The notes beneath the pieces are model-generated. The model saw nothing but the letters and a program-made list of their open reading frames with translations, was not told where the DNA came from and searched no databases. The translations under genes and the position numbers were made by a program. Shown here piece after piece: positions 1,442 to 51,682 of a stretch of 64,000 bases of DNA (positions are counted from its first letter, which is position 1; the number at the start of each line of letters is the position of its first letter). The stretch comes from Isoetes taiwanensis (Eukaryota > Streptophyta > Lycopodiopsida > Isoetales > Isoetaceae): contig JAJEKV010000147.1 of NCBI GenBank assembly GCA_021234155.1, positions 1,117,910-1,181,909 on the forward strand, given 5' to 3'.

Positions 1442-1506
1442 ATTACTGCTAAGGTTTTTCCCTCAAAAACCCTTCGGGGCGGGGGTTTTTTAATCCTGTC
1501 AGTAAT
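1442..1506 (+). repeat. Hairpin module copy A (UUCG tetraloop)
   Basis: An inverted repeat ATTACTG / CAGTAAT encloses a core that starts GGTTTTTCCCTC, continues AAAAACCC-TTCG-GGGCGGGGG and ends with a T6 run and AATCC. The apical loop is a C(UUCG)G tetraloop. It lies about 40 nt after the last family A reading frame, in the 3' untranslated region. The same core recurs at 2.95, 13.5 and 28.35 kb. Confidence 0.85.
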
Positions 1507-1605
1507 ACGCTTGCTGCTCTCTTTTTGTTTGGGTCCCATAGGCCAATTGGTCTCCGTGGATGCTAAAAAACCTATTCTATTCTATTCTATTCTATTCTAT
1601 TCTTA

Positions 1606-2409
1606 TTTGAGTAAGGCGGGTGACCGCTTATTGATCTGTTGATAAATAATTATGTCGGATAAATATAGCTGCATTAAAACATGGCAACCAAATCTAAGGA
1701 TCTTTAAGCTGCAGTTGGAAACATTGGGGATCTAGTAGCAGACCTGCGAAGAACAGTTAATGAGCCCATGTTTAATTTTTTCAAAATTTTAGCAGGTTAG
1801 CATTTGTTAATGTTAATTTTTGTTAGACTTATGTCATGCTATTAAGTTATTTATAAAGTTCAATATACTGTAGATGGATAGAATGAAGTTATTTGCTGAG
1901 AAAAAGGCAAGAGAGAGCAGGATGAGACTAGAGGAAGAGGCACATTGGATTCATTGCTATTGCAGCTGCCAGTGGATGTGATGTCTTCCAGAAACTGATG
2001 GGCAATCTCAACTTGTGTCATGAGTTTAATTTTCCTTATAAAACCAATGGTAGCTTTGGTATGCTGACCAAGGCTGTAGAAATTTGTTGTTTTATGATTT
2101 GCTACTTTAACCACCTCAATCATGACATTCTACTGGTAGAGTAATCTGTAATCAACATGTACCTTACGTGCATATTTGTGATACATTGGCTTGTATAAGG
2201 ATGCCCCTAACTAATGTATTTGTTATTGGGAGCAATTTACATCGTTTAAAAAGAGAGAAAAAAATTAAATGTGGATTTTATATCATTTCCGGTTTGAGTA
2301 TTAGTAGTAGGGAGCTTCCGGTTGTATTTTGTAAATTCCGAATGGGTTCAGGACTTGTAGGAAAATTTCCTGACAAGGTCTGAAAGTTTCCCCAACACTG
2401 GACAATATC
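1606..2409. other. Non-coding stretch, nothing recognised
   Basis: AT-rich sequence between the family A tail and the family B tail. Short reading frames on both strands show no motif I recognise. No repeat partner was seen elsewhere in the window. Confidence 0.4.
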
Positions 2410-2600
2410 GAATAGAATAGAATAGAATAGAATAGAATAGAATAGAATAGAATAGAATAGAATAGAATAGAATAGAATAGAATAGACATTAACGTCCCTT
2501 GTGCCCTCAGGCCCCTGGACTTGTGTAGCATGGGCGAGCTCCCTGAAAGGGCGCTACTAGCACATCACACTGTTATGATGTAGCCTTTTCTGAAGGCTGA
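2410..2600 (-). mobile_element. LINE family B, heavily 5'-truncated 3' end
   Basis: On the minus strand a short stretch homologous to the end of the 16-kb family B LINE (ctacacaagtccaggggcc, then gacgttaatgt) leads into a (TTCTA)n tail of about 15 units, which reads AATAG repeats at 2410-2486 on the plus strand. The peptide starting MLHKS parallels MLHKSGGLTA at the end of the 16.6-kb copy. Only the final 100-200 bp are present, as expected from abortive target-primed reverse transcription. The 5' limit is uncertain. Confidence 0.75.
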
Positions 2601-2941
2601 CTTTTTTCTATTATTACCAGCATCCCGCTTTACTTCGGCTTCGTGGCCGTGCAGTGATGCTTCGCTATCAACAACTTTGAGCTGTACACATTGTGGATTC
2701 CACTGTCCCACCTTTAATAGTGGGTCAAATTATGAATCCTTAGTTTTTGGTGCACCAGAACTCGAATGTGGAAATAGAACACCAGCCGGCGGGTTGTACC
2801 CGCTCTATCCTGGTGGTCGGTCGGAGGCCCCTCACTGTCCCGACACTTAGTTCCTTTCTTTTTTTACAATTATTCTGCCTAGTCTTGGTGCCCAAAGTGG
2901 TGCCCAGCGGCAACAGAGTCGCGCTGACCTGGACTACATTA

Positions 2942-3021
2942 GTGACGCCGATTACTATCAGGATTAAAAAACCCCGCCCCGAAGGGTTTTCGGGGAAAAA
3001 CCTTAATAGTAATAGGCTCAC
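2942..3021 (-). repeat. Hairpin module copy B (UUCG tetraloop)
   Basis: Read on the minus strand, the core is GGTTTTTCCCCG, AAAACCC-TTCG-GGGCGGGG, a T6 run and AATCC. It is enclosed by ATTACTAT / ATAGTAAT, and the arms extend outward as GTGAGCC against GGCGTCAC. These arms differ from those of copies A, C and D but are still complementary to each other. No LINE protein sequence was seen next to this copy. Confidence 0.8.
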
Positions 3022-4760
3022 TAATGCCCAAAATTATTATCAGATCCTTTTTCCATCGTTTTGGATTTTGGATTTCCGATGCCACATCCTTTTTCCATCT
3101 GGTGGATTTTGGATTCCCATGCTGCCGTTCATTTATAGCATCCATCCTTATAGCCTGCTGCCACCGCCATCGCCTGCCCCCCAATACACTGTATATTATC
3201 TTGCTTTATTCTGAGCTTCACTGAATTGAATCAGGATTTCTAACTGGCACATCGCGCATGACTGGCTTTTATTATATTTTTGTCTTAATTAACTGTATGC
3301 AGGCAAAGCGAGCCGAAATAACTTGCCGAAACCCCCTTCGTCGATTAGAGAATAGCTCGATTTGTGGCTGCGAGAACCTTGCTAGCTCGTCCTCCAATTC
3401 TTATGTTGCAGTAAGCTATCTTGGATCTGTTATTTTTTCGCATGCATTTCCTCGACTTATTTAACACACCGAATCACCGAATCTCTTGTGTCGACACTGG
3501 CCTTGAAATGTATATACATACAAAATCCTCTATCACACAAATCCGGCAGCTCCTAGCATCTAGTGCCATTGTTAATGCCTTGAAGTAAGGAGGGGAGCAA
3601 GCACTATGAAATGGGCCTTTGATCCGGAAAAGATTTGCTCTTACAAAAAGTCTCGTTTTCCAAACCTGTATCTTACCCAATGAAGCCATTAGAATCCACA
3701 AATCTCTCTGGTTGAGAGAGATTTATCAAAGAAAGAGCCCAGCAAATCCACGAAGTTAACAATATGAAAACATTAGAGAGTACGAAGGAAAATCATTACA
3801 GAATAGGAAATTACAGAAATTTCGTGGGCTAAAACCGTATGTTCTTCCTGCACTACATCTCTGTTTTGCATAAAATACCAGCCAAGATGGGAGACGCAAC
3901 CCAAAGGCGACCACAACCACTACCAAAGCCTGAAGTTTCAACAAAATCCCTTTCTCAAAGCCGATAGTGCTGTCTCGGATTTGTTCCTTCCTCAAATCTC
4001 CTTTATGCCGACTGCATCAGCGTCCTGTGCTCTGTTTGCCAGGTGTTGCAGCTAAACTATGCTTCAACCTAGAATATCATCCCTGTGGAGATCTGAAAAA
4101 CTGAAAATGAAGCTGAAAAACTCCAGAAGATTAAAGGCTCCAGAAAAATTACAGATGCATCGCATAGAAACATATGGAATGGATTATACAAAATGTGATT
4201 AACTAAGCTTATCCTTTTGGCCTTGCCGCCTTGCCGCATACGCCTTGCCGCCTTTAATATAGATATGGCTTTTAATATCCACAGAGACCAAATTGATCCA
4301 GCCCCTCCCCACAAAAATTACGAAGCATAATGTCATGTTCTGGCTCAAATTGCGACACCTATCTACCATCTTGGCAATTCCACGATGTGATAAAAGGGGC
4401 ATAATTTGACCCAAACATGCATTACTAATAGCATACCACATCTACTTAAGATATTTTGGCGGTGGGTGTTCCTTTTTGCCAAATTTTAACGCGCTCTTCG
4501 TTGGGAAGAAATTTGGCCATAGGGCATAGCATGTAGCAGAGTTCAAGGGTCAAGCAACTCTCTCCTTTAATATTGGTATTTTTCAACTCGTTGAAAAATG
4601 TTATTCTTTGCAACATTTAAGTATTAAATGATAAATCCAACACACAGGGCACATGGTCTTCGAATGTACTTTACTCCGGACAAAGTAGGGCCTCCATTAT
4701 ACTTCTACTTGCAAACCCACATGCCTCCCACGCCCTCCTACTCATCGAGGCCTCGCACTT
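3022..4760. other. Non-coding stretch with small local repeats
   Basis: There is an imperfect tandem at about 3050-3120 (cctttttccatc twice, each followed by ggattttggatt). Short CCTTGCCG repeats lie at about 4220-4250. Several minus-strand frames of 70-80 codons at 3.47-4.44 kb have no recognisable domain and are probably chance. Confidence 0.4.
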
Positions 4761-4803
4761 GCCACGACGGCCGAGTAGTATAAGTCTTAACAATGACTAT
4801 CAC

Positions 4804-5063
4804 GTAATAAATCTTCGTCACTACAAATACATCATAATCCTATGCATGCCACCTAATTATCAACATACAATCATTGCCAACCATGTTTACACTTTTTTAT
4901 TCCCATCTCATATGTATGTGTCTAACTACCATATTATAAATCTTCGTCACTACAAATACATCATAGTCCTATGCATGTCACCTAATTATCAACATACAAT
5001 CAGAGCCAACCATGTTTACACTTTTTTATTCCCATCTCATATGTATGTGTCTAACTACCATAT
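4804..5063 (+). repeat. 128-bp tandem duplication
   Basis: Two adjacent copies each run from ataaatcttcgtcactac to tgtctaactaccatatt, with only a few differences. The unit is distantly related to the block at 5519-5642 and 10519-10660 (shared words ccatgccacctaat and ttttttat). The whole neighbourhood of E1 is therefore one diverged repeat array. Confidence 0.85.
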
Positions 5064-5157
5064 TGCATAAGTGCACCATGGAAAGGATTTGAGCACATAG
5101 ACAATTGAAGGGCTGAATACATTTGGGTGATCGACAAGGGAATCATAAAAGGAAATC

Positions 5158-5183
5158 CATTGCCATTGCCATTGCCATTGCCA
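5158..5183 (+). repeat. (TTGCCA)n microsatellite
   Basis: Four consecutive TTGCCA hexamers. Confidence 0.9.
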
Positions 5184-5518
5184 AAATCTTGTATGGAAAG
5201 AAATTGAAAAGATATGCACTCTTTGTTAAGTAATAAGAACGATGGCCAAAACAAAGTTGAGGAGTCAATATTGGTGCTTTCAATCCATGTCTTTATAACA
5301 TTATTTCCACATATGCCACACATGACCTTGTGCCTTAGCCTTAATTACGACAAAGGAAGGCCTCCTTTGTACTTCTACTTGCAAACTCACACCTCTTTTA
5401 TTGTCCCTTCTCACAATGAGAGGAACAATGTTTTGTATTGTTCCTTCTCATAATGTTGTCGTTTTGGAAAGGCCCACTATTAACAATAGAGCATGCCACG
5501 TGCTTCTTCCATTAAACA

Positions 5519-5642
5519 TGGTTGCTTGCTTTATTACCTTCAAGATCCTAATGATGACAGCCACATGATAATTGATACCTCGTAATCCTCTCCATGCCAC
5601 CTAATGTTACTACCTAATTCTAGACACGCAATTCTGCTCAAC
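5519..5642 (+). repeat. Repeat R, left copy (flank of E1)
   Basis: About 124 bp from the ctttattaccttcaagatcc region to ctgctcaac. It matches 10519-10635 closely. It ends exactly where element E1 begins. Confidence 0.8.
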
Positions 5643-5782
5643 TTTTTGGGTTGCCCCTAGGGGGGCAAACCCTTGTTTATGTGGGTATGTGGGCATATCC
5701 AGGTATATGCCGGCATATGCTTAGCATATGCTGGTGACTGCTCCAAACTGGCTGCTGCCTGTAAACTCTCGGTCATCCGGCC
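5643..5782 (+). repeat. E1 leader (140-bp conserved 5' end)
   Basis: This 140-bp block is nearly identical to 46983-47122 on the minus strand (6 substitutions and 2 single-base indels by eye). It contains the palindrome GGGTTGCCCC-TA-GGGGGGCAAACCC and several overlapping GCATATGC words. It ends one base before the start codon of the SYP1 retrocopy, so it may have served as its 5' leader or promoter. Confidence 0.85.
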
Positions 5783-6638
5783 ATGAATTATGTGAATCTG
5801 AAGCGAGATGTGATGCGAGATTTGGAGAAGGGCGCAACCGAAATGGGAAGCTTGGACAAGAATCTGGCGAGTTTCTTTGATGAAATTTCCTATGTCAAGA
5901 CCGAGATGGAGAAGATCCGGCAGCTTTTGGCAAGCAAACGATGAATCCAAGACAGTACATCGCGCTGCAGCGATGAAGGCAGTTAGGGATAGGATGGATC
6001 GGGATGTGGAGGAAGTTTTACGCCTTGCAAGGTCGATTAAGGGGAAGCTTGAAGAGCTCGACAGGGCAAATATGGAAAATAGAAAAAGGCATGGTTATGA
6101 AGAGTGCACAGTTACCGTGAACGAAAGAAAAAAACTGCAGGATCTGATGGGGGAGTTTCAGAAACTGAGAGAAAAAATGATGGGCGAATACAGAGAAACG
6201 ATCAAGAGGCGTTATTTTACCATTACAGGCCAGCAGGCTAATGAACGAACTATTGAGGATATCATCGAAACTGGGGAGAGTGAGAATTTTTTGCAACAGG
6301 CCATTCAGGCACAGGGCAAAGGAAATGTGATTGAAACGTTAGGGAAATCCAAGAAAGGCATGATGCCGTTAAGGAAATTGAGAAAGCTTGTTGGAATTGC
6401 ATCAGAATTTTTTTTTAATGTGGCAGTTTTGGTTGAAGCACAGGGTGAGCAGCTGCATGATATTAAACAGCATGTTTCTAAAGCTTGCAATTATGTGGAG
6501 AAGGGGAGCAAGCAGCTCCATTGTGCAAAACAACATCAAAGATGTACTTGCAAATGCATGTGTATTGGAGTTAATTTGATGCTTGTTATGATCATCATGG
6601 TTGTTGTTCCGGTTGTTACAAGCATGAAAAAAGCTTGA
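5783..6638 (+). pseudogene. SYP1-like: Processed pseudogene of a SYP1-type Qa-SNARE syntaxin
   Basis: An intronless copy of a plasma-membrane syntaxin. From ATG at 5783 the Habc region reads in one frame (LEKGATEMGSLDKNL, FFDEISYVKTEMEKIR), then shifts near 5935 to ESKTVHRAAAMKAVRDRMD. The SNARE motif is split over three frames: EIQERHDAVKEIEK near 6345, LLELHQNFF near 6385, then NVAVLVEAQGEQLHDIKQHVSKACNYVEKGSKQL. A C-terminal membrane anchor ends VVPVVTSMKKA at 6638. The length matches a full syntaxin of about 290-300 residues, minus a small deletion around 6110. At least four frameshifts mean it cannot make a functional SNARE. Absence of introns suggests capture from mRNA. It starts directly behind the E1 leader. 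Confidence 0.85.
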
Positions 6639-6639
6639 T

Positions 6640-7050
6640 TGCTTGGATTTTGCCTCTGAATTCTGGAATTTTCCGTCCGTTGCTACTTATATAGATGCAG
6701 TTGATATACTTATCAGAGCTTTAGGATCCTTTTTAAAAGAAGAAGAAAGCACAAGCTACCACTCATCCTTTGACAAGTACAGAGTTGTTTCTATTAGTAC
6801 ATTTTTAGTAATATACATCTTGTTATGTTATTTTCAAAGACCGATTAACTAGCTGCCATCCTGAGTTCTTGGGCTCTGATCATGATCAATCCAAAAATAT
6901 AAGAGCCAATCTCAGTACCGCAGACATATTTTGTGATGGCTGTAGATTTTCCCCTTTTATCACGGCTCGAGACAATGGAAAGCAGGGAGCTCAAGAAACA
7001 TTGTGTATTCGAGTTGGCTCAAATCTGCTGATAGATATGGCTCCGGTTCT
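6640..7050 (+). other. E1 interior, unidentified
   Basis: Frames at 6643-6852 and 6869-7069 are open for about 70 codons each but show no motif I recognise. They may be 3' sequence of the syntaxin transcript or other captured DNA. Confidence 0.3.
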
Positions 7051-7155
7051 ATTCCTAGAGTTAAAGTGATGCATACATCACGAGATTTCCTTGGCCAAGT
7101 TTACATTCCTGAAATATACTGGCTATTGATGGTTCTTTGTGTGCTAGTTACGGCT
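7051..7155 (+). pseudogene. HAK/KUP potassium transporter fragment
   Basis: About 35 residues, [20 protein letters not shown] followed by [14 protein letters not shown]. They match the conserved segment of plant HAK/KUP/KT K+ transporters (PRVKVVHTS, GQIYIPEINW). In intact proteins the next residues lead to GNAYG. Here the match stops abruptly, so only a fragment was captured or survives. It sits between the syntaxin retrocopy and the PILS exon inside E1. Confidence 0.65.
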
Positions 7156-7409
7156 TGGTGCTATCAATTTCACAAAATGAGTATGTGGACATATTACCAG
7201 CTAAGGCACGAAAACAGCTTAGTAAGGTATTTCTTTTGCTGGACATTTGGTTTGCCATGTGCAGTTGGTGTCCACTGTGTTTTTGCCTTGCTTAATATTC
7301 ATACAGCTTGGATCAGCAGTCACATTTCAGAAAATACTTGAATGGTAACCTTCAGTTTAGAGCTCAGGCACACGACTTTCTATATCTTAGAATTTTCCTC
7401 TTTATGCAG

Positions 7410-7526
7410 GTGGTTTATTCTGGTTAACATTGTGCTTGGTGCAGTCCTAGGTTGTACCTTGTGGCTCATTGTCGCACTTATTATTCGCCCTCCAAAGGAA
7501 TTTTTCAAAAGACTATGCTTCAAAAG
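7410..7526 (+). pseudogene. Isolated PIN-LIKES (PILS) exon with splice sites
   Basis: The 39-codon segment has the signature WFILVNIVLGAVLGC and IVALIIRPPKEFFK. It aligns with WWFVPINVLLSNAIGC and IVALICRPPPQF of the full PILS gene at 54.4 kb. It is preceded by TTTATGCAG and followed by GTAAGG, a credible acceptor and donor, so this exon was captured as genomic DNA. PILS proteins are ER-located auxin carriers with 8-10 membrane helices. Neighbouring PILS exons were not seen, so this is a relic. Confidence 0.7.
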
Positions 7527-7859
7527 GTAAGGAACTCCTGTTTTGTTAAAAACTGTTGGTGGACATCAACCTGGTCACTAAAACAATTAGCCTTGAATAT
7601 TAAAACTTCCAAAAAGATACCATATCTAATTTCAATGATGACATTACATTTTGATGCGGACTGTGAATGGCATTTTCCCCATATGTAGGCTCTTAAACAT
7701 ATGTGATGTATCATGCAAATCTTTGAACAGTATAAGCTTAGTGAGGGTGCTTGGCAGTTCAGAGCAATGTAATTGGAAGGCATAGAACCATACAACAGAT
7801 CATTTGCATGCATGCTTCATGGTTATGCTTGTCTTGCTGATTTTTTGGAATGCTGATGG

Positions 7860-9060: not shown

Positions 9061-9611
9061 CGTTGTTTTTGTTTCAAAGGTCTACCATGCGTATCCATTA
9101 AAGCATGATCCGAGAAATTTACTATCAAAGACAACTGAACATGTCTCTCACTGTCTTGCAGATCGAGTATGCAAAGGCTTTTTGGAACATTCTTTTCTAC
9201 TTGTATCTTTCCCAGTCATTTTAAACTTCCAATTCAGAGACATAGAAAAATAACTGTCAAATTTAAGTGGGGCGAGGCTGTTGCAAATGGCAATCTCGGT
9301 TAGGCCAGAGGCAAATATATCTTCCAATTTTATAAATGAGCTAATATCAGGGACATTTGACTCAATGGAGGGATGGTGGCTTGTTATGTATACTTTTTTC
9401 TTGGTTTTGATATGCCCATCATCACTCATACATGTCAAATCTTAATTTCAGAGACTCGGCGATCCCGTTTTACGACCTTTCCTTCAAGTAACTTAGTCTC
9501 CCTACTTGTAGTAATTATAAGATGTGAAGTTGACTCACCTCACTGTTTTAGAGTTTCAATGATAAGGATGTGATACAATTTGGCCTTTTCCTATATCTTC
9601 ATCGTGTCATT

Positions 9612-10504: not shown

Positions 10505-10518
10505 TTTATATAGCGTCT

Positions 10519-12550: not shown

Positions 12551-12555
12551 AGGAA

Positions 12556-12690: not shown

Positions 12691-13757
12691 TATGCCATCG
12701 ATCCGAGCCCTCGGATCGACATTCTAGAAGGAGCGAGCATGCATGTCTTGCATGCATGCATGCCTTCTCTGGGAGATCGCTATATTAGGCGGGGTTCTTC
12801 ATCAACGTCTCATCGACGCTTCCTCTTCTCTCTCAGCAGTACCCTATTCTCTATTTCTTGAAACCATGCGGGGGAGGGGCTTCTCCTTGCTTGGATTGAC
12901 CAGTTTGGCGTTTCTTTCATGCTGTGGCATGTCCTTTCTCGGCCTTGCCTCTTCTTTAGCCATAATCTTTTGACCTTCGTCCTCGATCCCGTTTTGATAT
13001 GGAAGTTCTCTTCTATTCGGGAGGTTTTTGTCGTTTTCATGCGAGCTCCTTCTAGAATGCCATCGATCCAAGCCCTCGGATCGACATTCTAGAAGAAGCG
13101 AGCATGCATGTCTTGCATACATGCATGCCTTCTCTGGGAGATCGCTATATTAGGCAATGTCTCATCGGCGCTTCCTCTTCTCTCTCAGCAGTACCCTATT
13201 CTCTATTTCTTGAAACCCACCCTCCCCCCTTAATTGTTTAATGTATTTGTCGCCTGGCACGCGTGACCAGCCCCTCTATTTGAAGAGGTTTTTATTTTGT
13301 TGTCGCGTGGCACGCGTGATCAGCCCCTCCACTTTGGGAGGTTTGTTTTGTCACATTTGTTCTCGTGTTGGTGTTGTGCAGGTACAGGTTGGCAAGCGGC
13401 GGCGGCTTCGACTTCTCCATTCGTGGGTTTTTTGGGAGCGAATTCTCAGCCTTACGTTTGTCCAAGCCCCTTGCCGAGGGCTTATCACTGGGGTTTTTCC
13501 TCGAAAACCCGAAAGGGCGGGGTTTTTTAATCCCGGTGATAAGCCTTCGGTAGGTACACAAACAAACATCTATTAGCATTGTATTTCATGGGGTCCAAGT
13601 TGTATAATTGGACGTTCCCTTTATTTTTCTTCATGGGTAGTTCGCATATGTGCGGCTACCCACTATCCACCATTGTAGAAAATCTGCTGAGATGAATGAG
13701 AAGCCTATCTAGGGAGGTTTTTGTCGTTTTCATGCGAGCTCCTTCTAGAATATTTCA
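12690..13757 (+). repeat. Direct repeat block with nested duplications
   Basis: The unit beginning TGCCATCGATCC at 12690 recurs at 13059, and both copies run through the same ~165 bp (CTCTCAGCAGTACCC, CTATTTCTTGAAACC). The phrase GGGAGGTTTTTGTCG to CTCCTTCTAGAAT ends both units (13020-13058 and 13711-13750). Unit 2 contains about 490 bp of other DNA, including a 53-bp tandem at 13248-13350 (GGCACGCGTGAYCAGCCCCT twice) and hairpin copy C. At 13050-13094 TTCTAGAATG...TCGATCC pairs with GGATCGACATTCTAGAA. Confidence 0.75.
13474..13550 (+). repeat. Hairpin module copy C (GAAA tetraloop)
   Basis: The core is GGTTTTTCCTCG, AAAACCC-GAAA-GGGCGGGG, a T6 run and AATCC, enclosed by arms CCGAGGGCTTATCAC and GTGATAAGCCTTCGG that pair over 14 of 15 positions. 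The apical tetraloop is GAAA instead of the TTCG seen in the other three copies. It lies inside the 12.7-13.7 kb repeat block, away from any LINE coding sequence. Confidence 0.85.
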
Positions 13758-13839: not shown

Positions 13840-13948
13840 AAAACAGTGATCTTCCATTAGCGATTTTGGCCATCAATTTCCATCAGCGATTTTGCGATTT
13901 TGCCCATCGATTTTCATCAGCAATTTTGCGATTTTGCGATTTTTGCCC
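13840..13948 (+). repeat. Short imperfect repeats ahead of LINE B
   Basis: Repeated words CATCAGCGATTTTGCGATTTTG and CCCATCGATTTTCATCAGCAATTTTG give a local tandem structure directly before the truncated 5' end of the LINE. Confidence 0.6.
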
Positions 13949-16591
13949 ACGGGAGCAGCATAGTAGACTATGTGATAGCAAATGAGGAAGCAATAAAGGA
14001 AATCGGAAAGATGGAATTAGGGGAATGGCCGATAGGAAGGAGGGAGGGACACAGACCCATATTGCTCAAGATAAATGTGACAAGGGGAAGAACAGATGAC
14101 GAGCAAGGAAGAGGTAAACAGGCCGAGATAACAATTAAATTCAGAGAAAACAGAGTGGGAACATTCATAAAAACGGTACAAAAGGAAATAAAAGCGAAGG
14201 AATGGGGAGAGGGAATGAAGGACAGAGGGAATGATATGAACGACATCTTGGAGGAAGCAGCTAGAGTGGCATTCGGGAGAAGAGAAAGAGGAAGGAGGGC
14301 CATAGCATTTCGAAGGTCAGTATGGTTTGATGAAGGGTGCATGGAACAACGAAGGAAAGCCAAACATGCAAAAGGAACTGAGGCATACCAAGAGGAACGC
14401 AGAATGCGTGAAAATTCTGAAAAGAAAGAGAACCCAGGACCTGAAAAACCATCAATGGGGATTGGCCGAAGACCTGAAAAGGAGACCTAAGGTATTCTGG
14501 AACAATATGAAAAGAGGCTCAAAAGCAAAAGCGGATACATCAAAAGGGGAGGAGGGGAGAAGAACGGAAATAGAAATAGACTGGACAAGATACCTAGAAC
14601 GGTTGTACAAAACAGGAGCTGCACCAATCATGGACCCAGAAGGTAGACACAAACCCCCTTTCTCCAAGGAAGAAGTGACATGGGCACTAAACAAAATGGC
14701 AAACAACAAAGCTCCGGATCTATATGGGCTAACAGCGGAGATCTTTCAAGCGCGCGGGAACGAGATAATAGGGATTATAATGTAAATATTCAATGAGGTA
14801 GTACATTTGGGTCTTAGGAAAGATGGCGGTTTAACAAGGTAATCCCGGCCCACAAAGGAGGAAACAAGGAGGAACCGAGCAATTACATGACTATTATGGT
14901 CAGCTCAAGATTCGCGAAATGGTTCGGGAAAACCGGATCAAAAATCGAAAACGCGGGCGAAGCGGGGAAGCTCGAGCACAAGGTCGTGCGAGGTTTCGAC
15001 GGAGTATTCGACTACGGACCATTTGGTGACTCTAAGGATAATGATAGAGCAGACAAAGGAGAATAACAAGATCATATGCTGCTTCGTGGACTTTAAAAAA
15101 GCCTTCGACACAGTGCCTAGGGATAAACTTCTACTTAGGCTAATAGGACTAAGAGCACCAGAAGGGTTAGTAGGATCAATCGCAAGGCTATACCAAAAGG
15201 TGTATGCCAAAACAGCGGAGGGAGGAGAAGCCATAGAATGCGATACAGGAGTTAAACAAGGCTGTCCACTATCACCCACACTATTTGGGATATACATAGA
15301 TGCTCTACAGGAATTTGTCAGGGAAAGACAGGGAGATAGTGAAGCACCAATGATAGGGAAAACAAAAGTCCCAATAATGCTATATGCAGATGATTTAGGT
15401 ATGATGGCGACCAAAGCCAAAGGGATGCACATAATGCTAGAGATACTAGAGGAATTTTGTGAGGAGACATAACTGACAGTCAACCTGGGAAAAACAAAAA
15501 TAGTGACCTTCGGGACAAAGATAAAATACAGGCCATTTAGATAGAAGGGGGAGGAACTAGAGGAAGCCACGAGTGTGGTATGGTGTATCCGGGGTACGAC
15601 ACACATGGGGGGAGATGGTCAAAAGGAGCAGATACCAGATTCCAAGCAGCAATAGGCAATTATTACATCATGATGAATTATTGCAACAACAACAGGATCA
15701 CCAATTGGGAAATCAAAGCATACATATTCAGCACGATAGTAGCATCAACACGGTTTATGCGGATGTGAGACATGGGGACCGGGCACTGTCGGAAAAGAAA
15801 TGGGAAAAACAAGAAGGCATCTTGAGGCAATGGCACGGACGAGAATTTCGGTGAAGACAGGTACATCATTGGCAACAATCTTATATGAGACGGGGGAAAA
15901 GCCAATGGAAGTGAGGGCCTGGGAAAGAACAGTTAGGTACCTAATAAAGGATAATAGCTATGGGAAAGAGGACAAACTGTCATCACTAGCGATAGATGAA
16001 TCAGCAAAACATCACATAACAGCGGGCAAGGGATGGTTTAACGAATTGGCGAAATGGACAGCAAATATGGGGATGCAACTAAGTCAGATTATACAAGCAG
16101 ACGGATGGGACGAAGAATGGACAGGCAGAGCAATGAGAAACTGGCTGGCACGGCACACAGGGCCCAAGGCAGACTGGCTATTGGAAACCTTCAATCCAGG
16201 GGGACAGATAGGGCATATCACATACAAAAGCAGCATGTTGAATAAGAGTAACAGGGGAACGCTGGCCAGATTCAGGATGGGAAGCCACGACCTCCGAATT
16301 GAGAAAGATAGATGGAGGAAAATAGATAGAGCAGAGCGAATATGCCGAGTATGTGACTCAGGAAAAATAGAAGACGAAGAGCACATGGTAAAGGAGCATT
16401 TGTGTTCAAAACTGTTTATAACGATGCATTTGTGTATGGCCAAGAAGCCAGCTATAAGCACGATGCGGGTAATATATAAAGAACAAGTGAAGCCCGCTAG
16501 ATGGCTACATAAAACCTATGCGTCTGTTTGCTGGCAGCACCCTATGGGAGCTCGCAGGATGCTACATAAGTCCGGGGGCCTCACGGCCTGA
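13948..16591 (+). pseudogene. LINE family B ORF2 relic (EN end, RT, zinc motif)
   Basis: Visible parts in order: an endonuclease tail; the RT N-terminal stretch FSKEEVTWALNKMANNKAP at about 14660-14720; RT motif CFVDFKKAFDTVPR at about 15075; VKQGCPLSPTLFGIYIDAL near 15250; catalytic LYADDLGMM near 15380, intact; and a C-terminal CRVCDSGKIEDEEHMVKEHLC box near 16350 of the CxxC...H...C type. A TAA after EEFCEET (15470) and at least three frame changes break it. Family A shares the phrase QGCPLSPTLFG and the tail type, so the two families are related. Confidence 0.85.
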
Positions 16592-16625
16592 GCGACGTTA
16601 ATGTATATTCTATTCTATTCTATTT
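13948..16625 (+). mobile_element. LINE family B copy (5'-truncated)
   Basis: Non-LTR retrotransposon. It starts in the last part of the endonuclease (GSSIVDYVIAN, EGHRPILLKI), then connector, RT and a C-terminal zinc-binding region, and ends in a (TTCTA)n-like tail at 16603-16625. The tail and the preceding gacgttaatgt match the stub at 2.4 kb. The coding region is scattered over several frames (13948-14490, 14327-14785, 15023-15472, 15800-16591), so the copy is inactive. The LTR element at 16660 begins just 35 bp after the tail. Confidence 0.85.
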
Positions 16626-16659: not shown

Positions 16660-17163
16660 TGTTAACCACCTAGTGGTTAACATTGTGCATGCACTCAGAG
16701 CACTGGGCCCTTAACCTAATGGTCGCAGGTTCAAGTCCCGCTATGCCCACCCTTTCTTCTTTCTTCCTTTCTTTCTTTCTTTGCGAGCCTAGCCTGGCCT
16801 CCTCTCGCATTCCATTCATTCCCTCTCATTCTGGACTAGTTACGGAATTAGGTGCATGCAATGTTAGGTGTCAGTGGTGGCAGACTGACACTTGGCATGA
16901 TTAGGTTAACATAAGTGTAGGGATTAGATTTAGTTAGATGTACGGCTCAGATTTGCGGTCTACACTATATTAGACCGGAGCCTCTTCATTTGTACTCAGG
17001 TTTATCTCGAATTTGGAGAGCCTCACTTGGCCACGTTTCCCTCATTCTTTGTACATTTTTCTTTGTTTTGTTCTTGTTTTGTGATCATGAGCATGGCAGC
17101 CTTGTAGCATCCGGCAGTCATGGACTGCTGCTGCAGGGTGTATGTCAAGAACTCAAACTAACA
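16660..17163 (+). repeat. 5' LTR (504 bp, with extra insert)
   Basis: Matches the 3' LTR from about 16849 onward almost base for base. Near its start it carries about 150 bp (16693-16847) absent from the 3' LTR. The insert replaces the dinucleotide AT between TTGTGCATGCAC and ATTAGGTGCATGCA. Confidence 0.85.
16694..16790 (+). mobile_element. tRNA-Lys-like SINE fragment inside the 5' LTR
   Basis: AGAGCACTGGGCCCTTAACC followed by GGTCGCAGGTTCAAGTCC resembles the 3' two-thirds of a tRNA-Lys with CTT in the anticodon position and a good B box (16728-16738). The acceptor-like TATGCCCACC is followed by a (TTTC)n tail. The A-box side is degenerate and the 5' acceptor strand is missing, so it is not a functional tRNA. 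A tRNA-derived SINE is the likely source. Confidence 0.55.
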
Positions 17164-17164
17164 C

Positions 17165-21203: not shown

Positions 21204-21236
21204 TCTTAGCTGGTTTTTTCTTTTTATTGCTCTCTC

Positions 21237-24200
21237 ATGAAGATCTTGTCCTGGAATCTAAGGGGTATAAAAGGCCCTCTTAAAAGAAGAAGAGCCATTG
21301 CCCAAATTAGACAGTATAATGCTAACATTGTCATGCTTCAGGAACTGAGGTTACCCCAATTTGAATGTTCCAATTTGGCTGATTGGATATCTCCAGGCTG
21401 TGCATCTATATGGATTGAAGCTACAGGTACCTCGGGGGGATTATGTATTATCTGGAAAAACCTCAAACATACTTCAATTTACAATAGCCCCTGCAACTCT
21501 TGGCAGGCTGTTACTTTCTCCTCTTCTGAGAATAATTTTGGCATTATTAATATTTATGCATCCACAGACTCAAGAATTAGAGAATCTATGTGGTCAAATA
21601 TAGACAGTTGGCTATCCAATCATGGCAATTCAACTTGGATTTTGGGGGGAGATTTTAATAATACCCCATCCTGGGATCTCAAGGTGGGTAAACAACTCAA
21701 TCTTTCTTCCAGTGAAAAAATCTCCTGGGAAAATCTCATGGACAACCATCTCTTACATCATATCCCCTCCTCAACTGCTAAAATTACTTGGAGCAACAAA
21801 CAAAAGGGCAGTAATAGAGTCTTCTGTGCCTTAGACATGTTTTACATTACCAACTTAACTAATGGCTTTTGGGACAACTGTCTGGTTAAGAGTGATGAAT
21901 GTACTTCGATTTCTGATCACCAGCTTCAATTCTTATCCATAAAGCATGATAATCTGATTAAGAGACAAGGTAATGTTCCCTTCAAATTTAACTGTTCTCT
22001 TTTGAAATCTGAGGCCTTTTGTGCTGAATTCATTTCGTTTTATTCCAAACTTCCAAGGGTTGGCCTAAACAATCTTACATCTATGAGGGAATTCTATGCT
22101 AATATTAAAGCTGCTAAGGGGTGGATTAAGAGTTGGGCCAAAAATCACCAGGCTCAAAAGAATGCAGAGAAGAATAAATATCTGCAGGATATTAAAAATG
22201 TCAGATTGCAACTGCAGGTTGATCCATTCAATCCTAATTTACACCTTTTGGAGGGAAATCTGGAAAACTCCATTAAATCAATTGAGGAATTTGAAGCAAA
22301 GGGTGCTGCTATATCCTGTAAGCTCAAATATCATGCCAATCTGGACAAGGGAAACTCAAAGTTTTTTTTTAGAGTGGCTAGAAGCAAGCTCATGAAATCC
22401 AATATCTCTAAAGTTACCTCAGATGACAATACCATCCTTGACAATCACTCTGACATCTCCAGATTCTTCAACAATAAGTATGCTGAATTATTCTCCCAAC
22501 AATCTGTTGATTCTAACTCTATAAACAGGGCTAATATTTTTTATGATATGGTTAAGAATATTCCTTCTAGTCAACACTCAGATGAAATTGTATCCATGGA
22601 TTCCAATCTGTCTTTTCCTCCCAGTGTTGATGAGATTTTTAAAACCTTATCTTCTTTAGCCAAGGGGAAAAGCCCTGGACCGGATGGGTTTCCTTCTGAT
22701 TTTTATCTACACTTCTGGGATATTATCAAATGTGATTTTTCTAGAATGATTCATGGATTCTGGCTATCAAATCATCTCCACCCAGCTATCTCTGCTGGTC
22801 TTATTTCTCTAATTCCAAAAAAGGAGGATCCTACATCTTTTGCAGACTGGAGACCAATATCTCTGACCAACACTTCCTACAAAGTATGTGCTAAAACAAT
22901 TGCCAATAGGGTTAAGGGTCATCTCCAGAATGTTATTAGCCCTTCTCAATCTGCCTTTTTGCCAAATAGGTACATCCTTGACAATTACATTGCTGCTGTT
23001 GAAGGGTTACATTGGAGTAAGTATACCAGCCAAAATTGTGTTCTTTTGAAATTAGACTTCTCAAAAGCCTTTGACACTGTTCATTGGAAGTTTATCAGCT
23101 TTGCTCTGAACTATCTTGGATTCACTGATAAATTTATTAAATTGATTCTTGGATTGAACTCTCGATCTCAATCCTCTGTGCTGATAAATGGTTCCCCAAC
23201 CACTTTTTTCCCTTTGGCCAGAGGGGTAAGACAAGGTTGCCCTCTAGCCCCTTACATTTTTATTGCTGTGACTGAGGTTCTTTCTCGAGTGATTAATCAC
23301 CAGCAAAGTCTAGGGAAAATAAAGGGTCTAATTCTTCCAGATAATTCAACAAACTTGAATATCTTGCAATATGCAGATGACTCCTTTAGTTTCCTTCATA
23401 ATGATGTCTCTAATATCACTTCATATCTTGAAATTATTAGAGCCTTTAGTGCAGCCTCTGGGATCTCTCTCAACCTTAATAAGTGTAGCATCATAGGAGA
23501 GACAGGTCAACAATCTATATGTGGGATTAATTGCATTAATTCTACTCAGGCTTCTAAACTTTTGGGGTTACCTCTATCTCTGGACAATAATATCAAGGGC
23601 TTATGGAATCCTATCATTGCTAATATCAAGAGGAAGCTGAATTACTATGGCAGCTGTCTTTCCATGGCAGGCAGAACTTTAATTGCAAATAATGTTATTG
23701 CAAGCTCTCACATCTACTTTTCCTCTGCTTTGCTTGCACCTAAATCAATCTATTTGCAGCTTGAGAAGATTGTGAGAAATTTTATTTAAGGTAAGAAACA
23801 TCTTATAAATTGGAATTACCTTACTAATCCTAAATCCAAAGGTGGAATCGGGTGTAAAAATCTCTTCTTACAGGGCTCAGCATTAGTAGGCAAATATATT
23901 TAGAAAGCCCTTTTTCATAATAAAAATCCAGCTACTGTATTCATCAAGTATTGGTTGGATAAATGTAAATTCAAAGGTCACCCTTCTCTTGAGCACTTCT
24001 TTCCTTCATCTGCCTTCTTTCCAATCCAGCCTGCTCCAGATATCTCTCCAATCATGAGGAACATCATCATTGCCTGGAATAAAATATCTGGTTGCTTTGA
24101 TCATCAGAGTGTTTGCAAATTTAGCCTCCAAACCTCTATTTTCTGGAACTCTACTCTGTCAAATTCTAGAAGCACACCTCTTGCCTTCAAGCATCCTAGA

Positions 24201-25053
24201 ATATATAAAAAATGGAAATCTGCTGGAATTAATACCATTGGAGATCTTATCACTGATAATAGATGGACCTCTTGGACTGCTTTGAAAAGGAAGGTGAATG
24301 GTACTATATCTGATAAAAAGCTCTTTAGATCTATCAAAGTTGTCTTAGCTAACTTTAATCTAGGTACCAATAACCTTCCTAGGGACTGGATTAAATAAGC
24401 CTATCTACAAGGTCTCGGCAGTATACAGCCTGCTAGCTAATAATGGTAAACCTTCTAAGGCTAAGCACTATTGGAACATAAATGAGGAGCAAGATTCCAA
24501 ACTCTATAAGAATATCTGGCTTTCCCTATGCTCTCCTAAGATCTCCTACTTCATTTGGTTAATGGCAAACAAGAGTTTGCCTAATTTGGAATCTGTGGCT
24601 AAATTATATAATCCTAGCAGACTTAAAAAGGGTTTGGCCCCAATTTCTTCAACATGTGCTTTATGTCAAGAATCTGTGGAGACTATGATTCATATCTTTC
24701 ACTGTAGGAAATTGGAAGGTTTATGGGAATGGTGTGAGAATAAATTCAATGTTAAAAAACAAAATTCATTCATTGATTATTTTCTAACCAATGATGTTTT
24801 CTACAATACTATTCTTCACATTATTTTCTGGAATATTTGGAAGCACAGGAATAGGTGTCTATATGGGAATCATCAGATGTCTATTTTCTGGATTAAAATA
24901 AATATCATCCATGAATTGCAAAGTACTGCCACTGTCCAAAAAGGGCAGAATAATTCTCTCGATGGAAAATGGACTAACATTGGAAGATTTTATGGAAAAT
25001 TTAATTTATTTCAATTGCATTGTTCCAATACTAACAACAGCATTTTTTTATGA
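21237..25053 (+). pseudogene. LINE ORF2: endonuclease, RT and zf-RVT, with lesions
   Basis: APE-type endonuclease starts MKILSWNLRGIKGP, with QELRLP, GGDFNNTPS and SDHQLQF. RT carries KGKSPGPDGFPSDF, LIPKKEDP, LLKLDFSKAFDTVHW, GVRQGCPLAPYIF and catalytic QYADDSF, all intact. Stops lie at 23787 (TAA after RNFI) and 23901 (TAG after GKYI), both where plant L1 proteins usually have Trp. A frameshift near 24398 moves the C-terminal zf-RVT region into another frame (FIWLMANKSLP, CALCQESVETMIHIFHC, ending 25053). EN and RT look functional; the end is broken. Confidence 0.92.
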
Positions 25054-25511
25054 CTGTGCTAGAATATCTGGACTTCTGCAAGAGGGACTTGGACACTAGC
25101 TTTGATCTAAGTGAAGCCAACAGATATAAAGGTCAGATTAATACACAGGTCAATGCATTCCAAGATTTCTATTGGAAGTCTAAAATTCATGAGAGAATCT
25201 TCCCGAGGCTTGAAGACTTTGCTGTCTCAGAGATCCAGTGGGCTTATGAGTTTTGTAAAAGCACTTATCAGATGTACATTCTATTTTGGTTTTTGGAGAC
25301 TACTAGCAGGCACATGACAGAGAGGCAGTTTACATATTACAGAGAATGCTATTATCATCACAGGTGTAAGGCAGATGTATATGGGAATGTGCTGATTCTG
25401 ATGGCCACCTCTTGTGTTTCTGATCTTCTGGAATGCTTAGACTGGGGCAGGCACACCAATTTTATCTTGTCACCGACCTTTTCTGATCACTTTCCATTCC
25501 TTGACTCATAA
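25050..25511 (+). CDS. Third LINE ORF (153 aa) overlapping the ORF2 stop (ATGA)
   Basis: Starts ATG at 25050, so ATG and the ORF2 stop TGA share bases in ATGA, the classical stop-restart arrangement. The protein is intact, rich in Trp, Tyr, Phe and charged residues (FQDFYWKSKIHERIF, YRECYYHHRC), without a recognised domain. It lies inside the target duplications and ends about 340 bp before the poly-A tail, so it belongs to the element. Plant L1 LINEs normally end with ORF2 (some carry RNase H in that ORF). It may be an added accessory ORF or a captured host sequence. Confidence 0.55.
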   Translation: MTVLEYLDFCKRDLDTSFDLSEANRYKGQINTQVNAFQDFYWKSKIHERIFPRLEDFAVSEIQWAYEFCKSTYQMYILFWFLETTSRHMTERQFTYYRECYYHHRCKADVYGNVLILMATSCVSDLLECLDWGRHTNFILSPTFSDHFPFLDS

Positions 25512-25848
25512 AACCGCTCATCTTAGCTAATCTGCCTTGTGCAGACGTTTTTCACTTCTCTTTTTCAGGTAATTGGCAACTATGTGCTGTTCAACCCTTG
25601 CATACTTCAGTCATCAACAAAAACTGCTCGAGATCACTTCTGAAATCTAAAGTTTTTTTTGCTATATTTGGCTTATCATTTCAAGTTTCCAATTTTGGAC
25701 AGGCATTATAACTTTGTGCTAAGCCATTATATATTTTGCTTAATTCTGCTTTAGTATTTTGATCACTCATGGTCAAATACTTGAATTTCATGTACTTTCT
25801 AATCTATAATTAATGAAAAAAATCTCATTCCCTCAAAAAAAAAAAAAA

Positions 25849-25862
25849 ATTATGACTTTCTT
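25849..25862 (+). repeat. Right target duplication of the L1-type LINE
   Basis: ATTATGACTTTCTT after the poly-A tail. The first A could belong to the tail. Confidence 0.9.
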
Positions 25863-27701
25863 CTGCACTCTTAGAAGCCAGTTCCTGCAGATACACGAGT
25901 GTTATAAAGTTCTTTGGGCTCATGGATTATCACAGATACCAGTCGAGTTGGGGCAGAATCAAGCAAATATGACAGAGGACTTTTAAATCTATTGTATTAT
26001 TTTTCCAAGCTGGGTACCTGCACACAATCGATCAAGCAGTACAGAGCACTTGTTATCCTATCTTTTCAAGCTTTCATGCTGTTGCACAAAGATGGGCAGG
26101 GATGGCACAAGACAGCCAGTTGTTTCCAGAATCGTCATTTTTCCTCTATCTCAACTGGGCAGCAACGGCTATTTCATTTGATCCAGCTTTCACAAACCAG
26201 CGGCCTTCTTCACATTTCATCTGCACAAAGCACATACAGAAGGCAATCTCTTCACCAGCAATTTTATCTGGTCAAGTTTTTCAAGTATCTGGATCTCTTC
26301 AGTCTGCAACTTCCAATCATCCTTCTTATTAAGTTTTTCAAGAGGGCCAGCTCTGTGGCGAGCCCCCATCCATTATTCACCAGCAGAGTCTCGTCTGATT
26401 TGACACCTTCAGCTATCCTGCATCACCTACACTCAGTTAGCATATTATATCCCTCTGCTCCCGCCAGTACCGGTTGCAAATTCAATCAGCACATTTATCA
26501 GCGAATTCTTGAAGCATCAGGTCGGTCTTCTTCCAGCTGTTTAATCTGCATATCTGCAAACAAGCAAACATTTCATCAGTCACCACGGGATTCAATTCGA
26601 AAATCTTTGGGCGTTAGATATTTTATCTCTCCAAGCTCTGCAGCCCAGATTCAAGGCCATTCAAGCTCTCTCAGGCGATGTCCAAGCAGATTTAGACGCT
26701 CAGATTCCGGCACTCTATCAGGGCCTTGCCTCCCTTTTTCAGCAATTTCTATCATCAATCCTACTATATCCAGGACCTGCATTCTATTTTCGTACTTTCC
26801 ATTCGCAGAACTCCAGAAATTTTGGCCGCATTTACAGCAAATCCGGCCGCCATACCTGTATTGCAATAGTTTTCTCCATCTGACTCACGCTAGGGTTGCA
26901 GCTCACGCTCTGCTAGGGTTTCTTTTCCAATGGCTATGATTTGGCTGCCTAAAATCTATGGCCCAGATACAATATTGTTTTTAGGGCTCACTCTGGCTCA
27001 CGGGAGTCCACACCAATCTTTTCCAGTTTCCATGCCACGGTCCACGCCAGGGGCACGCTACTTTTTGCTGGCTGATAACCACCCACGGCCACCTACTCCT
27101 CACGGCCAAGCCACGCTCTGTTTTACAAAACCCACGCTCTGTTCCCAAAACCCACGCTTTGTTTTCAAAGACCCACTCTACTTCATGGCTTGCCACGCTC
27201 TTCTTGCCCCCACGCCTTATGACGCCACGCTCCAGAGGCCATGCTTTGTTTATGTCCACACTTGCTTCACGCCTGATTGCACGCTCACGCCCACGAGCCA
27301 TCCTCAAGCTCAAGCTCATGTCACGCACGCAGCATTCACGCTCAAACAATTTTTATGCTCAACCTTTATGGCTGATATTGGGGAGGCATTTTTGGTGTTT
27401 ACCTTTTAAAGACCCCCTTCCTTTTTTTTTAAGTGGAATTTTGGGCATTTATTTTAAATGTGACTTACCCATGATATAAGGGGATGGTCTTTATGTTTTT
27501 GCCCAAGATCTATGTTCTACATCGACATTCCTTCGGATCCTAGTCATCAATGCCTTCATGAAGATCTTTCGGCGACACAACAAACCATTACCAGTACCAT
27601 CATTTTCGCCCCTAAATTTTTGGCACCATGTTGTAATTGTCAGACTTGTCTTATAAAAGTCTGTACATGTTTTCGTGCTAAAAACTTTTAGGGGGAGGCA
27701 G
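25863..27701 (+). other. Right internal part of the LTR element
   Basis: Continuation of the LTR element interior after the nested LINE. It has one long frame (25914-26939, 341 codons) without a recognisable domain. It also holds CCACGCTCTGTTTTxAAAACC-like short tandem repeats at 27110-27175 and the polypurine tract at the right end. Confidence 0.6.
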
Positions 27702-28050
27702 TGTTAACCACCTTGTGCATGCACATATTAGGTGCATGCACATGTTAGGTGTCAGTGGTGGCAGACTGACACTTGGCATGATTAGGTTAACATAAGTGTA
27801 GGGATTAGATTTAGTTAGATGTACGGCTCAGATTTGCGGTCTACACTATATTAGACCGGAGCCTCTTCATTTGTACTCAGGTTTATCTCAAATTTGGAGA
27901 GCCTCACTTGGCCACGTTTCCCTCATTCTTTGTACATTTTTCTTTGTCTTGTTCTTGTTCTTGTTTTGTGATCATGAGCATGGCATCCTTGTAGCATCCG
28001 GCAGTCATGGACTGCTGCTGCAGGGTGTATGCCAAGAACTCAAACTAACA
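27702..28050 (+). repeat. 3' LTR (349 bp)
   Basis: TGTTAACC...CTAACA, nearly identical to the 5' LTR from GTTAGGTGTCAG onward. One visible length difference is an extra TTGTTC in the CTTTG-rich stretch. Confidence 0.9.
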
Positions 28051-28055
28051 AATAT
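28051..28055 (+). repeat. Target duplication AATAT (right)
   Basis: Partner of 16655-16659. Confidence 0.85.
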
Positions 28056-28179
28056 CGACTTCCATCATTGAAGATTGCCCATCGATTTCCATCAGAGAAG
28101 ATTGTGAACGATTGAGAGCAGAGCAATTGTTTAATGATTTGAGAGCAGATTGATTATGAACAATTTGCAATAGATGGAC

Positions 28180-28232
28180 GAATGCACAGACAGACGGACG
28201 GATGGACAGGCGGACAGACAGACGGACATTAT
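28180..28232 (+). repeat. (GACA/GACG)n minisatellite
   Basis: Run of GACA, GACG, GATG and GGCG units just beyond the 3' tail of the minus-strand LINE A. Confidence 0.85.
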
Positions 28233-28343
28233 ATTTATGAATGATAGAGAGATAGAAAGAAAGAAAGAAAGAAAGAATGAATGATTTCTATTGTCCACTG
28301 AGACCAATCGGCCTATGGGACCCAGAAGGAGCGTAGCAAACTT

Positions 28344-28407
28344 ATTACTGTCTGGGTTAAAAAACCCTGCCCCGAAGGGTTTTCGAGGGAAAAACCATGG
28401 CAGTAAT
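28344..28407 (-). repeat. Hairpin module copy D (UUCG tetraloop)
   Basis: On the minus strand ATTACTG and CAGTAAT enclose GGTTTTTCCCTCG, AAAACCC-TTCG-GGGCAGGG, T6 and AACCC. It sits 60 nt after the LINE A stop codon in the LINE sense, as copy A does. Confidence 0.85.
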
Positions 28408-51680: not shown

Positions 51681-51682
51681 GT

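What the first reader, a model, noticed from the sequence alone, without database searches (positions are those of the whole stretch)
1442..28407. Hairpin module with swapped tetraloop and copy-specific complementary arms
Four copies (1442-1506, 2942-3021 minus, 13474-13550, 28344-28407 minus) share a core with the apical loop TTCG in three and GAAA in one, both known ultrastable RNA tetraloops closed by CCC/GGG. The outer arms differ in sequence between copies (ATTACTG, ATTACTAT, GGCTTATCAC) but each is complementary to its partner. Compensatory change plus tetraloop exchange is what selection on RNA structure looks like. Within the core AAAACCC can pair either with the upstream GGTTTT or with the downstream GGGGTTTTT, so two exclusive folds exist.
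Basis: partly seen in the sequence, partly recalled or inferred. Interest (0 to 1): 0.88.

Follow-up and report, generated by a model that had tools for sequence, protein, structure and literature searches.

The report
Transposon RNA hairpin with U-rich clamp
Thousands of mobile elements of several kinds in one plant genome carry the same small RNA hairpin, which looks like a clamp that could grip the RNA's poly(A) tail and so protect the transposon RNA from decay.

Summary
In detail: four hairpin modules at the stated places, UUCG loops in three and GAAA in one, arms differing but complementary. They are parts of transposons: two lie near the 3' end of related LINEs, one in a SINE-like element, one in a non-coding repeat. 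The genome, consistent with Isoetes taiwanensis, has 10,443 exact matches to the U-tract pattern (reversed control 6). Four families whose homology stops at the module carry it, each with its own outer arms. The arms covary. The apex covaries too (two C-G to U-A double changes in one subfamily; UUCG to GAAA in two families). Among family arms, G-U outnumbers A-C 11 to 1, pointing to RNA of the sense strand. I propose an ENE-type RNA-stability element, a variant with a conserved A4 bulge and UNCG/GNRA cap. Triplex formation is inferred, not tested, and energy alone does not always favour this fold. The alternative folds are real energetically; whether they act as a switch is open.

The parts
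1429..1521 (+). Copy 1 (LINE subfamily B): hairpin with arms; core 1453-1493, U5 1455-1459, A-bulge 1465-1468, UUCG loop 1473-1476, U6 1486-1491
2936..3026 (-). Copy 2 (SINE-like family A): hairpin; core 2964-3002, U5 2996-3000, A4 2987-2990, UUCG 2980-2983, U6 2966-2971; outer stem CATTAGTG/CACTAATG
13468..13558 (+). Copy 3 (family C): hairpin with GAAA loop; core 13492-13530, U5 13494-13498, A4 13504-13507, GAAA 13511-13514, U6 13523-13528
28329..28420 (-). Copy 4 (LINE subfamily E): hairpin; core 28357-28396, U5 28390-28394, A4 28380-28383, UUCG 28373-28376, U6 28359-28364
81..953 (+). Reverse transcriptase ORF of the LINE that carries copy 1 (Pfam RVT_1, E 6.8e-13)
1564..1603 (+). 3' end of the copy-1 LINE: A6 tract followed by (CTATT)n microsatellite tail
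29220..29600 (-). ORF fragment of the LINE that carries copy 4; no Pfam match of its own, placed by 70-83% DNA identity of stretches just downstream of it (28980-29212) to the copy-1 LINE
28246..28281 (-). (TTCT)n tail of the copy-4 LINE
2410..3125 (-). SINE-like family A element with copy 2; tail (TATTC)n 2410-2486; the 5' end is uncertain (homology among 37 copies usually stops about 70-135 nt upstream of the core, but runs further in some pairs)
12692..13751 (+). Family C repeat with copy 3: two related units sharing start (12692-12865 / 13057-13217) and end (13019-13058 / 13712-13751); TATA-like stretch by reading

Best explanation
The module is an RNA element carried by transposons on their sense strand, most likely a poly(A)-binding clamp of the ENE type (element for nuclear expression). 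Long arms with one bulged A hold up a G-C clamp (GG/CC). Above it five U's face six U's plus AA. A second G-C clamp (CCYCG/CGGGG, 5-6 bp), an A4 bulge and a CCC[UUCG or GAAA]GGG cap close the hairpin. I infer that the poly(A) tail, or in LINEs the short A-tract just before the tail, enters the U-loop and forms U.A-U triples. That would block deadenylation and decay, so that more transposon RNA survives to be reverse-transcribed. Shown here: a common fold available to all families, its covariation, and its occurrence in transposon families with unrelated flanks. Supported but not proven: the sense strand and the open U-loop. Inferred: triple helix, tail binding, stabilisation.
For: (1) The same open fold (clamp, U5/U6AA loop, 5-6 bp, A4 bulge, 3 bp, tetraloop) lies 0.7-5.1 kcal/mol above the optimum in A, B, D, E, F, G, C1 and C2, before any triplex energy. 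With the 5-G core, commonest among C(UUCG)G cores, put on LINE flanks (a composite) it equals the optimum in B and D and lies 1.4 (F) and 3.3 (E) above it. In family H it is the optimum. (2) Covariation; at 108 arm pairs of 9 families 88 Watson-Crick, 11 G-U, 1 A-C. Subfamily G changes one upper-stem pair and the loop-closing pair from C-G to U-A; its core has 1,744 exact matches, control 0. UUCG to GAAA occurs in families C and H. (3) Homology between families stops at core plus arms: about -14 to +58 between LINE and A, at most -28 to +60 for C; none outside it for H in the 171 nt held. (4) For the Arabidopsis Evade ENE, the U's and the G-C pairs next to them were needed for the triplex, and deleting the ENE cut RNA stability and new insertions (PMC12501189; sections read).
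Against: Nothing shows a triplex, a poly(A) tail on these RNAs, or an effect on stability. LINE tails are (TATTC)n, (TTCC)n and the like, not poly(A); the encoded A-tract is short, and family C has none within 120 nt (longest run on average 2.7). In A the module lies about 480 nt upstream of the tail. Energy alone does not favour the open fold in LINE consensuses with the 4-G core: P(upper stem) is 0.01 in B, 0.02 in E, 0.27 in D, 0.26 in F, against 0.60 in A and 0.99 in C1 and C2. RNAalifold on the 31 copies chose another core pairing, AAAACCC with GGGUUUU. In the apical helices single copies show 11 A-C against 2 G-U mispairs, opposite to the arms (G-U to A-C 44:22 inner, 28:14 outer). Sense-strand fold energy is not better than antisense in copies 1 and 4. 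A4 is kept in 94 of 100 listed copies, which a plain U-loop clamp does not explain. Rfam has no match at gathering score, nor on the module up to E = 10.
Confidence: 0.6

Rival explanations
1. It is a recognition hairpin for the LINE reverse transcriptase: a 3' stem-loop that marks the RNA for target-primed reverse transcription, borrowed by the other elements.
For: In LINE subfamilies the module sits about 75 nt before the tail, and the stretch between is more alike across subfamilies (76%) than the coding region (63%). LINE and SINE-like copies share the inner ATTACT arms.
Against: Family A takes its 3' end from a different LINE (the 13900-16624 type: its last about 62 codons match 15 of 37 A copies at +312 to +519). 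The one copy of that LINE seen here ends about 15 nt after its ORF and has no module within it: the window holds only four strong model hits. A's module is about 480 nt from its tail. None of the seven C copies showed a LINE-type pentanucleotide tail. Such a hairpin need not conserve U-tracts and clamps.
Confidence: 0.2
2. It is a binding site for a host or element protein (or a substrate of the small-RNA machinery); the U-loop, A4 bulge and capped loop are protein contacts and no triplex forms.
For: Conservation of A4 and of the capped loop goes beyond what a U-loop clamp needs. Stems are long and stable, above all in copies 2 and 3.
Against: Loop identity is exchangeable (UUCG, GAAA), so the loop letters are not read. 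I know of no such protein. U-tracts facing each other between G-C clamps match ENE anatomy more specifically.
Confidence: 0.12
3. The module is a transcription terminator or pause signal: G-C hairpin followed by U6 (T-run for polymerase III).
For: CGGGG followed by T6 on the sense strand looks like an intrinsic terminator; T-runs stop polymerase III (general knowledge).
Against: A terminator explains neither the facing 5' U5 nor the long covarying arms. In family A it would cut the RNA some 480 nt before the 3' end that the element needs for reverse transcription.
Confidence: 0.04
4. It is a DNA-level feature: an inverted repeat of a small mobile element, or an insertion into existing palindromes.
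For: The module is a long inverted repeat flanked by unrelated sequence in different families.
Against: In family A arms go with the element's flank (37 of 37 and 34 of 37 copies). 11 G-U against 1 A-C among family arms points to RNA of one strand. The core is not palindromic.
Confidence: 0.03

Closest known systems
ENE of Evade/Copia93, an Arabidopsis LTR retrotransposon (PMC12501189: outline, abstract with introduction, first results section and discussion read)
   Same: Fold-back in the 3' UTR of a retrotransposon RNA, U-rich internal loops, G-C pairs next to them; proposed role protection of the RNA
   Different: Evade has four U-rich tracts and is an LTR element. Here one U-loop with two tracts, a conserved A4 bulge and UNCG/GNRA cap, in LINEs and in SINE-like and unclassified elements; no triplex test here
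ENEs found by Tycowski, Shu and Steitz 2016 in transposon RNAs of plants and fungi (paper not held; known from what PMC12501189 and PMC10078130 say of it, and from recall)
   Same: Transposon RNAs, plant hosts, U-rich internal loop
   Different: About 200 distinct motifs, said by PMC12501189 to be strongly associated with LTR retrotransposons. I could not check whether any of theirs is this module or lies in a LINE
Double ENE (dENE) of transposons (named in a passage of PMC10078130; anatomy recalled)
   Same: U-rich internal loop, proposed poly(A) binding
   Different: Only one U-rich internal loop here
LINE 3' stem-loops that guide reverse transcription (recalled)
   Same: Hairpin close to a microsatellite tail in the LINE subfamilies
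   Different: Also present far from the tail and in elements with other 3' ends

Membership tests
ENE | Hairpin whose stem is interrupted by a U-rich internal loop with U-tracts on both strands | tested here: met
   U5 facing U6AA in A-G and C families, U4 facing U5CAU in H; the fold was computed for all and its arm helices covary. It is the computed optimum only in H and, with UU:AA or UU:AU pairs added or as a tie, in A, C1, C2 and the composite LINE cores
ENE | G-C pairs directly on both sides of the U-loop | tested here: met
   GG/CC below and CC/GG above; pairs 27:71, 28:70 and 35:60 are G-C in 28, 27 and 31 of 31 rows; requirement taken from PMC12501189. Caveat: most copies were collected by patterns that fix these letters; the pattern fixes only CC of the lower clamp and lists the same core
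ENE | Lies near the 3' end of a transcript with a poly(A) tail or A-rich tract | tested here: inconclusive
   LINEs: about 75 nt before the tail; of 52 LINE copies 35 had the motif searched for, 33 of these with A4-A7 and 34 at +67 to +74. A: about 480 nt before the tail. C: no A-tract within 120 nt. No RNA data
ENE | Forms a U.A-U triple helix with poly(A) | not testable with these tools
   needs melting or structure work
ENE | Raises RNA level or half-life | not testable with these tools
   needs reporter assays
double ENE (dENE) | Two U-rich internal loops in one stem (recalled) | tested here: not met
   one U-rich internal loop in the folds computed
Any Rfam 15 family | Match at gathering score | tested here: not met
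   0 matches in the window; none on the module up to E = 10
LINE 3' recognition stem-loop | Shared by LINE and the SINE that uses its machinery, at the common 3' end | tested here: not met
   family A shares its 3' end with another LINE whose one copy seen here lacks the module; for the LINE subfamilies alone the question stays open

The most novel reading that the evidence does not exclude
A self-gated ENE that spread between unrelated transposons. The A4 bulge, kept across the families, is an internal stand-in for the poly(A) tail. Without a tail, A4 (with CC) pairs with the U5 tract and the U6 side folds on itself. When a tail is present it wins the U-loop and the element opens into the triplex. 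The RNA would thus sense its own tail, and this switch was exchanged as a module among LINEs, a SINE-like element and two other repeats.
Probability: 0.12. Interest if true: 0.85.

Novelty: new variant of a known kind. Interest (0 to 1): 0.62.

Why it matters
If it is an ENE, poly(A)-clamping RNA elements are not mainly a matter of LTR retrotransposons: they lie in LINEs and SINE-like elements at about 10,000 sites in one genome, probably a lycophyte's. The module would be a rare case of a defined RNA structure shared by several transposon kinds with no other common sequence. It offers natural variants of both tracts, clamp and cap for testing which parts of an ENE matter, and a test of whether retrotransposons escape deadenylation by the same trick across land plants.

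Tried and rejected
Rejected: insertion into palindromes (arms go with flanks); DNA inverted repeat (G-U over A-C among family arms); apical fold CCYCGAA/UUCGGGG (possible in UUCG families only, lost in the GAAA families, and it does not explain the paired changes in subfamily G); double ENE (one U-loop only). An H-type pseudoknot of GGUUUU/AAAACC with CCUCG/CGGGG was considered on paper and dropped, because the U6 strand would leave at the wrong end for a triplex.

Led nowhere: plasmid search (two weak chance hits); Rfam at both thresholds; protein search with the LINE RT (7 distant hits, no organism shown); Tycowski 2012 and 2016 are not held. The encoded A-tract is not a general partner (family C).

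Bias to remember: the 96 copies (from 88 loci and the window) and the 31-row alignment come from copies found with a strict pattern that fixed the U-tracts and AAAACCC and left out the 5-G core and subfamily G, so the 100% identity of the U-tracts is by construction. Subfamilies were set by me from arms, two rows moved by hand. Patterns fix arm letters, so they show the core given the arms, not the constancy of arms. Of the 100 listed rows I put 28, picked by hand and mostly variants, through the script: 24 of 28 keep both U-tracts by a loose test, and several G-type rows folded to the A4:U5 form. The rest were read by eye, as were the rows. The alignment gap near column 37 misaligns the upper stem.
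Full report
What is there. The window lies in a 1.66-Gb genome of 1,110 sequences. Its size, number of sequences and a scaffold of 17.40 Mb fit the published Isoetes taiwanensis assembly (1658.30 Mb, N50 17.40 Mb, 204 + 909 sequences; passages of PMC8566536); this naming is an inference. The four modules are at the stated places. On the reported strand copies 1-3 fold as arms, a U-rich internal loop, a short G-C stem, an A-bulge and a CCC[UUCG or GAAA]GGG cap; copy 4's optimum differs in the core. Shuffle z-scores are -2.26, -6.17, -6.91, -2.25 for this strand and -2.38, -5.50, -2.76, -2.84 for the other, so energy alone does not settle the strand of copies 1 and 4.

Carriers. Copies 1 and 4 lie near the 3' end of related LINEs (RT ORF 81-953, Pfam RVT_1; copy 4's LINE by DNA identity of 70-83% in stretches of 159 and 69 nt), about 75 nt before a microsatellite tail. 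Copy 2 lies in a family of which 37 copies were examined. Their homology usually stops 70-135 nt upstream of the core, but in some pairs runs to about -290, -600 or -1500, so the 5' end is uncertain. In 15 of 37 copies a stretch at +312 to +519 matches the C-terminal codons of another LINE, the one at 13900-16624 in this window, and the two share the kind of tail. I call it SINE-like for that make-up. Copy 3 lies in a repeat of two related units (12692-13751), with no ORF over 200 codons found near the seven copies examined, class not settled. A fourth carrier, family H, was found outside the window: ten exact copies of a LINE-type upper stem with a GAAA loop, all ten in one sequence context with its own arms.

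Unrelated flanks, shared module. All-against-all comparison of 96 copies shows long homology within the LINE superfamily (over 1.4 kb), within A and within C. Between them it is confined to core plus arms: about -14 to +58, counted from the core start, between LINE and A; for C mostly about -4 to +50, but up to -28 to +60 with some copies (LINE B and C share GCTTAT[T/C]ACT in the arm). A few longer distances I take to be other repeats in the same fetched stretches; that was not checked one by one. Family H shares nothing outside the module with the window or L001-L102, within the 171 nt held.

Numbers, each with its reversed control. Strict core: 119, control 0. Only U-tracts and adjoining clamp letters fixed: 10,443, control 6. 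Inner arms fixed and core free: 4,044, control 2. C-family clamp and arm letters fixed, rest free: 1,674, control 0. Subfamily G core: 1,744, control 0. LINE-type stem with GAAA: 10, control 0. In the listed first rows nearly all hold the module by reading; the exceptions are C49:31754, a chance match, and C79:435422, a strongly diverged copy. No subfamily with other letters in the U-loop surfaced among the rows listed.

Covariation. On 31 copies chosen for diversity out of 96, 83.2% of cells pair against 75.7% in shuffles, 69 cells have changes on both sides against 30.8, and the covariation score is 0.289 against 0.170; none of 500 shuffles reaches these three. Further pair types: 41 against 35.6 (11 of 500 reach it). 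Pairs with a change on both sides: 14 against 12.0 (62 of 500), not unusual. Slid structures score 0.07-0.12. All double changes lie in the arms; the two apical helices have none in this set. At family level (9 sequences: C3 is a single copy, C2 two, G copied from one locus; register set by hand) 12 arm pairs each give 88 Watson-Crick, 11 G-U, 1 A-C and 8 others of 108. Among the 31 copies the ratio of G-U to A-C is 44:22 in inner arms and 28:14 in outer arms, but 2:11 in the apical helices; the last speaks against selection on the apex in single copies, or reflects decay of G-C pairs. Outer arms differ between families yet stay complementary: CATTAGTG/CACTAATG in A, CAGCA/TGCTG in LINE B, CTAGTA/TACTAG in G, GCCGAA/TTCGGC and GCCGAG/CTCGGC in two C subfamilies, CTTGG..CTAGT/ACTAG..CCAAG in H. 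Subfamily G differs from the 5-G LINE core at four apical positions that make exactly two C-G to U-A double changes in the open fold, one in the upper stem and one closing the loop.

The fold and its rivals. The open fold was computed with U5, U6 and A4 kept unpaired. It lies above the optimum by 1.4 (A), 2.5 (B), 0.7 (D), 5.1 (E), 1.5 (F), 1.6 (G), 2.1 (C1), 2.1 (C2) and 5.2 (C3) kcal/mol. The optimum is the same fold with UU:AA pairs added in A, C1 and C2, and another fold in the rest. With the 5-G core, which adds a base pair, it ties with the optimum in B and D (composite). In H it is the optimum, and there the letters that let UU pair with AA are gone (CAUCC instead of AAUCC). RNAalifold prefers AAAACCC with GGGUUUU on the 31 copies, in columns that hardly vary. 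I therefore hold that the open fold is the one available to all families and best supported by changes between them, that closed folds exist beside it in several, and that a switch is possible but unproven.

Mechanism. U-tracts facing each other between G-C clamps are the anatomy of ENEs. For the Arabidopsis element Evade, changing U's in the loop or the adjoining G-C pairs abolished the triplex step in melting, and deleting the ENE lowered RNA stability and new insertions (PMC12501189). By analogy this module would hold the poly(A) tail as U.A-U triples, or the short A-tract before LINE tails (A4-A7 in 33 of the 35 copies, out of 52 LINE copies, in which the searched motif was found). In A, A-runs lie downstream too, hardly longer than upstream (longest run 5.7 against 4.8 on average); C has none within 120 nt. 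None of this was measured. The A4 bulge is kept in 94 of 100 copies listed by a search that did not fix it. ENE anatomy does not ask for it as far as I know, so a further role is likely.

Prior art. A search for ENE with triple helix and non-LTR found 0 papers. ENE spelled out with transposable element found 4 papers, of which PMC12501189 alone is about a retrotransposon by title. A search for triple helix, LINE retrotransposon, poly A tail, Selaginella, Isoetes and element for nuclear expression, at least three terms, found 0. The library lacks the 2016 survey, so I cannot say that this module is absent from it.

Verdict. A real RNA structure under selection in its arms, shared by several transposon families with unrelated flanks, best read as an ENE-type clamp of a new sub-type; biochemical proof is outstanding.

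Noticed in passing
window 13900-16624 (+): LINE whose ORF ends about 15 nt before its (TATTC)n-type tail; its C-terminal codons match the 3' part of the SINE-like family A
   Followed up: partly
window 16690-16747 (+): tRNA-like stretch with GGTTCAAGTCC (B-box-like, by reading) right behind the LINE tail, perhaps a second SINE; no tRNA search was run
   Followed up: no
window 12692-13751: Family C carries TTCTAGAA palindromes near its unit ends, resembling heat-shock elements by recall, and a TATA-like box; unit order differs in copy L004
   Followed up: partly
window 40350-40638 and 49389-49688: Hairpin-rich repeats with inverted copies; at 40503-40587 a match to Rfam mir-5595 below gathering score on both strands
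   Followed up: no
window 34101-35361: Tandem units with a conserved CGACGTGGTAGAACTTAAAAGCCTATACGTGTCCTCCACTT-like stretch
   Followed up: no
window 51682-51794: 50-nt inverted repeat, 90% complementary, 13 nt between the arms
   Followed up: no
window 54362-55738 (+): ORF of 458 aa that looks like an auxin efflux carrier-like membrane protein by reading; not searched
   Followed up: no
L103-L112: Family H: module with U4/U5 tracts and GAAA loop in a repeat of unknown class
   Followed up: partly
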